Assembly: GCA_021324755.1 (NCBI GenBank) | Contig: JAJPIL010000007.1 | Span: forward strand, 310,001-374,000 | Length of the DNA: 64,000 bases | Direction: 5' to 3' | Source of the DNA: Pseudomonadota bacterium | GTDB lineage: Bacteria; Desulfobacterota; Binatia; Binatales; Binataceae | Shown here: positions 45,685 through 63,926 of the stretch, one piece after another | How the letters are laid out: each line of letters begins with the position of its first letter | Position numbering within the stretch: the stretch's first letter is position 1 | Notes under the pieces: model-generated | What the model saw: the letters and a program-made list of their open reading frames with translations, nothing else | What the model was told of the DNA's origin: nothing | The model's database searches: none | Made by a program: the position numbers and the translations under genes

Positions 45685-45703
45685 GCCTGCTTCGCCAGCA
45701 GGC
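45685..45703 (+). terminator. Hairpin after the ABC exporter gene
   Basis: GCCTGCT (45685-45691) pairs with AGCAGGC (45697-45703) around TCGCC, 8 nt after the stop codon. No U-run is present. Confidence 0.5.
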
Positions 45704-45724
45704 CAAGACTTCACTCTCCCCACG

Positions 45725-45753
45725 CCGCTACGCGCACCCCCCACGCGTGGCGG
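45725..45753. terminator. Strong hairpin in the convergent gap
   Basis: CCGCTACGCG (45725-45734) pairs with CGCGTGGCGG (45744-45753) with a single U-G wobble around a CACCCCCCA loop. It lies between the convergent exporter and DsrE genes and may stop both transcripts. Confidence 0.45.
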
Positions 45754-46021
45754 CCGACGAAGGATGCGGGACCTCAGTTAGCTGGAGGTTCCGCTCCTTC
45801 CCTCCTTATAGCTGACGCGACTTGCGTCAAACTGCTTCCAGCCGCCAGATAGTTTGATTTAATCGGCGAGCTTTAATAGCTCATCGCCTCGAACCCAAAA
45901 AAACATCCCTGCAAGCCGATACTGCACGGCAAACAACCACTTTTCGGCACGCCCTTGGCACAAGCTGTGTGGCGCGAATTTCCACGGGCCATTTGGCGAG
46001 CCCGGCTTGAACCAGAAATCG

Positions 46022-46381
46022 CTACGAAATAACGCGGTCGACCGTTGCCATTTTCTCAGCGAGCCATTGCGGCGTCACATAACCCATCCCCGACCAGCTC
46101 CGCACCACATCCTCCGCGACACCCCTGCCGCGGCAGCACGCCCCTCAGCCATAAACGGGGATCTTGTTGTCGCGGGCGAATTGCATCAGTTCGCGAAGCG
46201 GCGGCAACCCAACTCCCTGGACGTTGGCGGCGACCACATCGTTAAACAACACTACCCCATCCCCCAAAAGCGCGATCTCAGCCTCGTGACCTGCCTCCTT
46301 GGCGCCTTTAGCCAAAAGGAAGGGCAGAGTTGCGCGCGTAGGGTCCTCAAAGCCGTGAGTGCCAATATAAAGAAACTTCAT
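46022..46381 (-). CDS. Selenocysteine-containing DsrE/TusD-like sulfur-relay protein (in-frame TGA read as Sec79)
   Basis: Read through the TGA at 46147-46145, this is a 119-aa DsrE-fold protein, the normal family length. It opens MKFLYIGTHGFEDPTRATLP, continues KEAGHEAEIALLGDGVVLF and LRELMQFARDNKIPVYG, then Sec79-GACCRGRGV and VTPQWLAEKMATVDRVI. In TusD the active Cys78 sits in an NVC-AAALRRGV context, and Sec79 aligns exactly with it. The 40 residues after the TGA are fully family-like. A strong SECIS-like hairpin follows. The ATG 46381 is fixed by GGGGG (46392-46388) 6 nt upstream. DsrE proteins pass sulfane sulfur between carriers. Truncation at the TGA would lose a third of the fold. 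Confidence 0.88.
46114..46147 (-). promoter_or_regulatory. Candidate bacterial SECIS of the DsrE gene
   Basis: Eleven nt after the TGA (46147-46145), CCGCGGC (46133-46127) pairs with GUCGCGG (46120-46114), seven pairs with one G-U, around the hexaloop AGGGGU (46126-46121). The E. coli fdhF element has the hexaloop AGGUCU, closed by a C-G pair, starting 17 nt after UGA. Here the loop starts 18 nt after and is also closed by C-G. Confidence 0.72.
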
Positions 46382-47108
46382 CGCTTTCCCCCTGTCGGTC
46401 GTTTTCGACAAAGCCTTTACTTTATTGCTACACGGTTGTGGCTCGACAGGCTACCGCGCTACTTGCGTGCTCTTGTCGCGCCCGCATCAGGAGTTCGAGG
46501 CGCGTTTCGGCTCCGTCGCCGCGAAAGCCTATCCTTTCCCGAGTATGAACCACTTGAGCCATTGGATCCCTAATTTCAATCCGAACGTCTCGCCGGCTCA
46601 CCACGCCAAAGCAAACGCCATCACCGCAAGCTCGCATCGGCAGGAACGCTCGCCCACACTCGGCAACCCGTGCAATCGAAAACTTCAAACACCCGGCCTG
46701 CCATCACAAGCTTTTTCTTGCTTCAATTTTCCTTGCTTGTCCGTTTTTACCCAACTGTGGCGCAATTCTTCACCACGAAAATGCGCTCCTAGCCCATCTC
46801 GTTCACTGGACGATAGTTGAGCAGGCGATCCAACCGAGCGAGCAAACCAGCAGCCTTGCTCGAGCCGAGCAATGGATGGCGTCCTTGCTAATTCGGGCGC
46901 GTTGAATGGTGCACGACGAAAGGCCAAATCGAGACAAGCCTTTGGTGCGGTGATCTTGCTGAATCGATTCTTCCTCTTGGCGCTTTAGCTTCTCGCCCTC
47001 TTACAACTACGCGTTCGTAATGCTATTCAGTTTCGTGCACTCTTCTGTAAAAATTTGCAAAACCAGCGCAAGGACGAATCCTGTTTGGCAGGCAAGTAGA
47101 GAGTCACC
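46382..47108. other. Gap of about 730 bp ahead of the polysaccharide locus
   Basis: This divergent region should hold the promoter for the locus starting at 47109 and for the DsrE gene. Several frames are open on both strands but show no family content. No transposon ends or direct repeats bounding the locus are recognised. Confidence 0.4.
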
Positions 47109-62778: not shown

Positions 62779-63139
62779 TGGTGGAGGCGGGGGGAATCGA
62801 ACCCCCGTCCGGAAGCCCTCAGGCCACGGCCACTACACGCTTAGTCCGTGTATGTTTTCTCGCCAGCCGGCCGCCCACGGACAGGCTGCCGGATGGCCAG
62901 TCGCTTGAAAGCTCTCGGCTTTGCGCCCAAGCGACGAACTGCGAAAGCCTAGCCCGCTAGTCGACGCCCCACTCCGCCGCCGCGGGCGAGCAGCGGTAGG
63001 ACGCTAGCGGCACTTAGGCCGCTAGAGCGTAACCGTAATCGTCGGCAGGTAATTTTGCCGTCTGCTTGTTTTACGGGATAGCAGCACCCCGGCGTGCAGC
63101 CATGGTCCTCCTGCTTCCGTCGAACCCAGTTTCGCCCCC
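62779..63139 (-). ncRNA. ssrA: Transfer-messenger RNA (tmRNA)
   Basis: On the minus strand the 5' end GGGGGCGAAACTGGGTTCGACGG (here split: GGGGGCG then AAACTGG) starts at 63139. The 3' end carries a T-arm GGGTTCGATTCCC and an encoded CCA at 62779, with the acceptor stem pairing GGGGGCG to CGCCTCC. The tag frame runs from GCA at 63058 to the TAA at 63016-63014 and encodes AKLPADDYGYALAA, ending in the proteolysis signal ALAA. It rescues stalled ribosomes with SmpB, whose gene is divergent and 128 bp away. Confidence 0.96.
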
Positions 63140-63842: not shown

Positions 63843-63926
63843 GCCGGGGTGGTGGAAACGGTAGACACAGGGGACTTAAAATCCCCGGGCCGCAAGGCCG
63901 TACGGGTTCGAGTCCCGTCCCCGGCA
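63843..63926 (+). tRNA. tRNA-Leu (UAA)
   Basis: The acceptor GCCGGGG pairs with CCCCGGC (63919-63925), with A as discriminator at 63926. The anticodon stem GGGGA/TCCCC encloses the loop CTTAAAA with anticodon TAA at 63877-63879. A long variable arm (GGGCCGCAAGGCC region) and T-arm GGGTTCGAGTCCC mark a class II tRNA. CCA is not encoded. Confidence 0.97.

What the first reader, a model, noticed from the sequence alone, without database searches (positions are those of the whole stretch)
46022..46381. DsrE/TusD-like selenoprotein with Sec at the sulfur-accepting cysteine
Seen: TGA at residue 79 is followed by 40 residues that complete the DsrE fold (GACCRGRGV, VTPQWLAEKM). Sec79 aligns with Cys78 of TusD. 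The hairpin after the TGA has a 7-bp stem, the hexaloop AGGGGU and nearly the same UGA-to-loop distance as E. coli fdhF. Two independent Sec candidates in one window make chance or sequencing error unlikely.
Basis: partly seen in the sequence, partly recalled or inferred. Interest (0 to 1): 0.9.

Follow-up and report, generated by a model that had tools for sequence, protein, structure and literature searches.

The report
DsrE-like selenoprotein with UxxC motif
A small bacterial sulfur/redox protein is very probably made with the rare amino acid selenocysteine at its active site, encoded by a UGA that would otherwise be a stop; it is a solid new example of a selenoprotein family that was already described in 2005.

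Summary
Window 46381..46022 encodes a 119-residue DsrE-family protein (PF02635, 50.1 bits, cut-off 22.7) with an in-frame TGA at codon 79; the 40 residues after it complete the fold. The genome has tRNA-Sec, SelA, SelB and a SelD that itself carries a TGA. Of 74 loci (window and relatives) with a residue at this column, 58 have Cys, 16 have TGA, none anything else. Among relatives, codons after the TGA are under purifying selection. The RNA after the TGA forms a hairpin within the published bacterial SECIS limits; only 1 of 100 synonymous recodings is as stable, and 57 Cys relatives show no mean excess. So UGA79 very probably encodes selenocysteine in the motif UGAC (UxxC). DsrE-like UxxC selenoproteins have been in print since 2005: a new member, not a new kind. 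'TusD-like' is only partly right: Sec79 aligns with the TusD active cysteine, but the protein fails the TusD model, is the only PF02635 match in its genome, and its second cysteine fits a two-thiol DsrE protein such as YchN. I did not find the claimed second Sec candidate in the window. Side lead: three relatives carry TGA at the second position of the motif (CxxU).

The parts
46022..46381 (-). dsrE-like selenoprotein gene, 119 codons plus stop TAG, ATG start
46145..46147 (-). in-frame TGA, codon 79, read as selenocysteine
46136..46138 (-). codon 82, the second cysteine of the UxxC motif (invariant Cys in alignment A4 of 35 sequences)
46114..46133 (-). predicted SECIS hairpin, 8-bp stem with loop GGGG at 46122-46125, loop 19 nt after the UGA
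   Evidence: limits from PMC13188914
46388..46393 (-). Shine-Dalgarno-like AGGGGG, six bases before the ATG
   Evidence: read from the sequence

Best explanation
The gene is a DsrE/DsrF-family selenoprotein. UGA79 is decoded as selenocysteine by SelB and tRNA-Sec with the help of a hairpin just downstream (inferred from sequence, not shown by experiment). The protein is cytosolic by its lack of a leader, folds as a DsrE domain, and has Sec79 and Cys82 in a UxxC motif at the place where DsrE and TusD carry persulfide. Most likely mechanism (inferred, about 0.5 on its own): the Sec79 selenolate is the attacking group for sulfane sulfur or an oxidised thiol partner, and Cys82 resolves the Se-S bond, so it works as a two-thiol sulfur/redox protein, perhaps as a homo-oligomer like YchN, not as a subunit of a TusBCD complex.
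For: PF02635 over the whole read-through frame. tRNA-Sec 66.5 bits, called SeC with anticodon tca by ARAGORN; SelB 400 bits, SelA 601 bits, SelD 381 bits with its own single TGA (14, 61). 74 of 80 loci aligned at column 79: 16 TGA, 58 Cys, 0 other. In 143 matches in 395 phylum genomes (my count of the printed table), 22 carry one in-frame stop, always TGA (32); 18 of the 22 are at the Sec79 column, 3 at the Cys82 column, 1 elsewhere. Purifying selection after the TGA: L062/L063/L066 pS 0.15-0.37 against pN 0.01-0.02 over 36 codons. Hairpin: 14 distinct Sec sequences mean z -2.64 against synonymous recodings, 57 Cys sequences -0.16; window 1 of 100 recodings as stable. 12 of 13 Sec-DsrE genomes have SelB over the cut-off, 17 of 26 Cys-DsrE genomes. 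AlphaFold model pLDDT 93.2; best solved folds are DsrE proteins: 3mc3 Z 15.0, YchN Z 13.6, DsrE of DsrEFH Z 12.2, TusD Z 12.1. Sulfur on DsrE-Cys78 was shown by mass spectrometry in PMC3397948 (passages).
Against: No expression, labelling or mass data. Energy alone of the hairpin is ordinary. RNAalifold on the 14 Sec sequences found a different, weak consensus (-1.98 kcal/mol); counted on a named stem, 78.6% of cells pair (0 of 500 shuffles) but a slide by -1 shows as many changes on both sides. The strict loop test holds in 9 of 14 Sec sequences and also in 7 of 57 Cys ones. One of 13 Sec genomes lacks a SelB match over the cut-off (1.7 Mb). The window's own tail is its less conserved part: 15-16 of 39 identical to its nearest relatives, against 43-49 of 77 before the UGA. 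Function and partner are untested; no neighbour is conserved across the loci.
Confidence: 0.92

Rival explanations
1. The TGA is an ordinary stop: the gene makes a 78-residue DsrE fragment, or is a fresh pseudogene (TGC/TGT to TGA is one step).
For: One base change from either Cys codon gives TGA. The window's tail is less conserved than its front. Hairpin energy alone is ordinary.
Against: The same column is TGA in relatives filed under several phyla (tree and titles) with open, conserved frames after it; purifying selection after the TGA (63); no TAA or TAG among the 22 stops; Sec machinery present; the part after the TGA holds the last strand of the fold.
Confidence: 0.05
2. Sequencing or assembly error at a Cys codon.
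For: Metagenome-type contigs can contain errors; reads were not available.
Against: Relatives from separate records carry the same TGA, among them L035, L036, L037 (nearest, 50-56% identical).
Confidence: 0.01
3. UGA is read as another residue (for example Trp) or by general read-through, without selenium.
For: Frame openness alone cannot tell which residue is inserted.
Against: The column is Cys in all 58 non-TGA loci; tRNA-Sec with anticodon tca is present; genes in the window end in TGA followed by short unrelated frames, e.g. 57378 and 59417.
Confidence: 0.02
4. It is a true TusD/DsrE subunit of a TusBCD or DsrEFH sulfur relay.
For: Sec79 aligns with the TusD active cysteine; TusD and DsrE share the fold (Z 12.1 and 12.2).
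Against: TusD model 12.4 bits against cut-off 92; only one PF02635 match in the genome, so no TusC-type partner was seen; TusD lacks the second cysteine, which is invariant in A4.
Confidence: 0.05

Closest known systems
DsrE-like selenoproteins (UxxC), Pfam PF02635; PMC1088965, PMC1794560, PMC2398784, listed in PMC9312934 and PMC13188914
   Same: Same Pfam family, same UxxC motif, UGA in place of a conserved Cys, SECIS-like hairpin downstream (passages read).
   Different: I could not align the window protein with the published examples (Sargasso, GOS, Desulfovibrio vulgaris; WP_014524487.1), so which published subgroup it belongs to is open.
YchN of E. coli (1jx7) and DsrE/DsrF-like protein 3mc3 of Sulfolobus
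   Same: Fold (Z 13.6 and 15.0); YchN has both cysteines of the CxxC aligned with Sec79 and Cys82, 3mc3 the first one.
   Different: They have Cys, not Sec; sequence identity 17-21%.
TusD (2d1p_A) and DsrE of DsrEFH (2hy5_A)
   Same: Fold (Z 12.1, 12.2); active cysteine of TusD aligns with Sec79.
   Different: TusD has no second cysteine in that alignment; both work in hetero-hexamers; no partner found here.

Membership tests
DsrE/DsrF-like family (PF02635) | Score over the curated Pfam cut-off | tested here: met
   50.1 bits, cut-off 22.7, residues 1-118; 41.3 bits in the genome scan
DsrE-like selenoprotein (UxxC) | In-frame UGA where homologues have Cys | tested here: met
   16 TGA, 58 Cys, 0 other of 74 loci with that column; 6 of 80 loci did not reach it
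DsrE-like selenoprotein (UxxC) | Second Cys three residues after Sec | tested here: met
   UGAC in the window; Cys82 invariant in A4, 35 sequences
DsrE-like selenoprotein (UxxC) | Bacterial SECIS: loop 3-9 nt, stem 4-16 bp, G in first two loop bases, 16-37 nt from UGA, energy at most -7.5 (limits in PMC13188914) | tested here: met
   Loop 4 nt GGGG, stem 8 bp, 19 nt, -14.4 kcal/mol for 24 nt
DsrE-like selenoprotein (UxxC) | Host decodes UGA as Sec | tested here: met
   tRNA-Sec, SelB, SelA, SelD over their cut-offs
DsrE-like selenoprotein (UxxC) | Selenium in the purified protein | not testable with these tools
   needs labelling or mass spectrometry
TusD / DsrE subunit | NCBIfam TusD model over its cut-off | tested here: not met
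   12.4 bits, cut-off 92
TusD / DsrE subunit | Partner subunits encoded in the genome | tested here: inconclusive
   Only one PF02635 match in a 95.5% complete genome; TusB/DsrH and DsrC/TusE models were not searched
YchN-like two-thiol DsrE protein | CxxC at the active site and homohexamer (hexamer recalled) | tested here: inconclusive
   Both cysteines align with YchN (E 8.7e-7); oligomeric state not tested

The most novel reading that the evidence does not exclude
The window protein belongs to a group of two-thiol DsrE selenoproteins, patchily spread across phyla, in which selenium can sit at either catalytic position: UxxC in the window and most Sec relatives, CxxU in a CKAC subfamily of the same phylum (3 of 30 fetched members). 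The family would then be a natural Sec/Cys exchange series at both ends of one redox motif, with cytosolic and, in other clades, possibly Tat-exported forms.
Probability: 0.5. Interest if true: 0.5.

Novelty: new member of a known kind. Interest (0 to 1): 0.33.

Why it matters
Automatic annotation would stop this gene at the UGA and lose the active site and the last third of the fold. It adds a well-supported case, with close Cys and Sec relatives, to a selenoprotein family whose function the 2026 review counts among those still largely uncharacterised (PMC13188914, passage). The mixed Sec/Cys family is a ready set for asking what selenium adds to DsrE-type sulfur chemistry.

Tried and rejected

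Gene neighbours as a clue to function: 3-kb flanks of 36 fetched loci at most; no neighbour family is common to the set. Three Acidobacteria Cys relatives (L049, L057, L061) share neighbours that look like CcdA and a thioredoxin-like protein (names recalled, no family search). The window's neighbours are an ABC exporter and sugar-nucleotide genes, with no evident link. No sigma-70-like promoter or terminator match in 45700-46900.

Plasmid collection: no tblastn match at E 1e-3. PDB by single sequence: nothing below E 0.3. NCBIfam: no model over its cut-off for the window protein. RNAalifold consensus did not recover the hairpin.

Papers: no paper held in the library has both YchN and DsrE.

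Full report
What is there. On the minus strand, 46381..46022, an ATG-led frame of 119 codons contains one TGA at codon 79 (46147-46145) and ends in TAG. An AGGGGG lies six bases before the ATG. Read with the TGA as a residue, the whole frame matches Pfam DsrE over residues 1-118, 50.1 bits against a cut-off of 22.7. Without it, the listed ORF stops at 46145 and ends ...NKIPVYG. It is the only PF02635 match in the genome.

Can the organism decode Sec? The genome in which the window lies (G000, 3.07 Mb, 29 contigs, 95.5% complete) has a tRNA-Sec of 66.5 bits that ARAGORN calls SeC with anticodon tca (the other hits of that search include ordinary tRNAs, two of which ARAGORN calls Ser and Cys). 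SelB scores 400 bits (cut-off 242), SelA 601 (268) and SelD 381 (125). SelD lies next to selB and has a single in-frame TGA near its start (...KAAGUAGK...), where Sec in SelD is known (recalled). So a second selenoprotein gene exists in the genome, though not in the window.

Column 79 in relatives. Loci L022-L101 were gathered by three searches. Of these 80, 74 have a residue aligned with codon 79: 16 TGA, 58 TGC or TGT, no other codon; six do not reach the column. The 16 include the window itself, one gene fetched twice (L023 and L065), and two close copies (L062, L063); after removing repeats in the first 60 nt, 14 Sec and 57 Cys remain (L063, L065, L090 dropped). Named Sec relatives come from records titled Deltaproteobacteria, Neomarinimicrobiota, Betaproteobacteria, Rokuibacteriota, Acidobacteria and Proteobacteria. 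The nearest are L035, L036 and L037 (56, 54 and 50% identical). In one search I count 143 matches in 99 of 395 genomes; 22 carry one in-frame stop, always TGA. Five of the 22 were among the loci fetched and 17 were fetched later: 18 have TGA at column 79, 3 at column 82 (L109, L110, L112; motif CKAU), 1 at another cysteine (L082). The earlier search did show one relative with a TAG (L026), in a different, Cys-type subgroup.

Selection after the TGA. Pairs of Sec relatives keep the downstream frame under purifying selection: for L062/L063/L066 pS 0.15-0.37 against pN 0.01-0.02 over 36 codons; for L035/L036/L037 pS 0.61-0.84 against pN 0.13-0.17. For the window against L035-L037 only 13 gap-free codons after the TGA could be compared (pS 0.41-0.61, pN 0.26-0.38), a weaker signal; its tail is 15-16 of 39 identical to them, its front 43-49 of 77.

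The hairpin. The RNA after the UGA folds into an 8-bp stem with loop GGGG, which starts 19 nt after the UGA. A 2026 review (PMC13188914, passages) gives limits for bacterial SECIS elements: loop 3-9 nt, stem 4-16 bp, a G in the first two loop bases, 16-37 nt from the UGA, energy at most -7.5 kcal/mol. The window meets all (24-nt energy -14.4). E. coli fdhF gives loop GGUC closed by A-U, 18 nt after its UGA at codon 140. As a test I compared each sequence with 100 recodings that keep the protein. Sec sequences (14) have mean z -2.64; 11 of 14 have at most 5 of 100 recodings as stable, and all have at most 10; the window has 1. Cys sequences (57) have mean z -0.16. The difference in energy between groups has a Mann-Whitney p of 1e-7, not corrected for relatedness. 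Results against: the plain shuffle test on 53 nt is ordinary (z -1.11); a stricter test on loop position and G holds in 9 of 14 Sec and 7 of 57 Cys sequences; RNAalifold found another, weak structure; in the pair count, 78.6% of cells pair and 0 of 500 shuffles reach that, but a slide by -1 shows 5 pairs with changes on both sides against 4 for the named stem.

Machinery against Sec state. Forty loci were put into a SelB search and lie in 39 genomes. SelB is over the cut-off in 12 of the 13 genomes with a Sec form, and in 17 of the 26 with a Cys form. The exception, G480 (L060), is a 1.7-Mb genome. This agrees with Sec decoding but separates the groups only weakly.

History. In a tree of 71 sequences the window joins L035-L037 with strong support (100/93), and the Sec label needs at least four changes; with only 117 columns many forks are unresolved, and the window's branch is long. 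In one search, of 41 genomes of the window's family (G000 included), three have a match: the window, G001 (Sec, 35% identical) and G012 (Cys, a different subgroup). So the gene is patchy and may have moved between lineages (inference).

Fold and place of Sec. AlphaFold2 with alignment A4, Sec modelled as Cys, gives mean pLDDT 93.2 and pTM 0.87; the part after the UGA holds three helices and the last strand. Best solved matches are DsrE-family proteins: 3mc3 Z 15.0, 3pnx_B 13.7, YchN 13.6, 2qs7_A 12.3, DsrE of DsrEFH 12.2, TusD 12.1. In the profile alignments, Sec79 falls on the first cysteine of YchN's CKTC, with Cys82 on the second; it falls on the cysteine of TusD that by my count is Cys78, where the second position is Ala; in 3mc3 only the first cysteine is present. 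A persulfide on the matching DsrE-Cys78 of Allochromatium vinosum was shown by mass spectrometry, and that cysteine is essential in vivo (PMC3397948, abstract and passages).

How it most likely works. Shown here by computation: gene, frame, motif, machinery, fold, conservation. Inferred: UGA79 is decoded as Sec; the selenolate attacks sulfane sulfur or an oxidised thiol; Cys82 resolves the Se-S bond; the protein acts on its own, perhaps as a homo-oligomer. Substrate and partner are unknown.

What is known. DsrE-like UxxC selenoproteins were reported from the Sargasso Sea (2 sequences; PMC1088965), Desulfovibrio vulgaris (PMC1794560) and the Global Ocean Sampling data (DsrE 1 and 2; PMC2398784) and are tabled in reviews (PMC9312934; PMC13188914). 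I saw passages of these papers only. The window gene is a new member of that kind.

Side lead. The three CKAU relatives prompted a search for their subfamily. Of 30 loci fetched, all have Cys at the first position; 27 have Cys and 3 TGA at the second. One of the three (L122) has a strong SECIS-like hairpin with 1 of 200 recodings as stable; the other two have none in the stretch tested, and their longer folds place a hairpin further away. Two Cys members (L129, L131) also fold unusually well, so the test is not clean. SelB was not checked in these three genomes. The passages I read list DsrE-like selenoproteins only as UxxC where a motif is given; a library search for selenoprotein, DsrE and CxxU found five papers, all already sampled by passage. 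That is no proof that CxxU DsrE is unpublished.

Noticed in passing
L109 306-659 (-), L110 268-621 (-), L112 336-695 (+); again as L120-L122: DsrE relatives with TGA at the second position of the motif (CKAU, i.e. CxxU); 3 of 30 fetched members of that subfamily, the other 27 have Cys there. Only L112/L122 has a clear SECIS-like hairpin.
   Followed up: partly
L038-L066, N-terminal ends: Many Chitinophagaceae, Verrucomicrobia and Acidobacteria relatives, Cys and Sec forms alike, start with leaders such as MIRRSFL... or MARRTFL..., which look like Tat signals (judged by eye, no predictor run); the window protein has none.
   Followed up: no
L082, match region (G299:C2:48377-48658): In-frame TGA at a different cysteine (GULQH where close relatives have GCLEH or GCLQH) while the CxxC position is Cys; could be a second Sec site or a lesion.
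   Followed up: no
L018 (G000:C13:62117-63043): SelD of the same genome carries its own in-frame TGA near the start and lies next to selB.
   Followed up: partly
L062 and L066 (both in G481): One Acidobacteria genome holds two Sec-type DsrE genes of this family.
   Followed up: no
window 62779-63139 (-): tmRNA gene, tag ADDYGYALAA; tRNA-Leu (taa) at 63843-63926.
   Followed up: no
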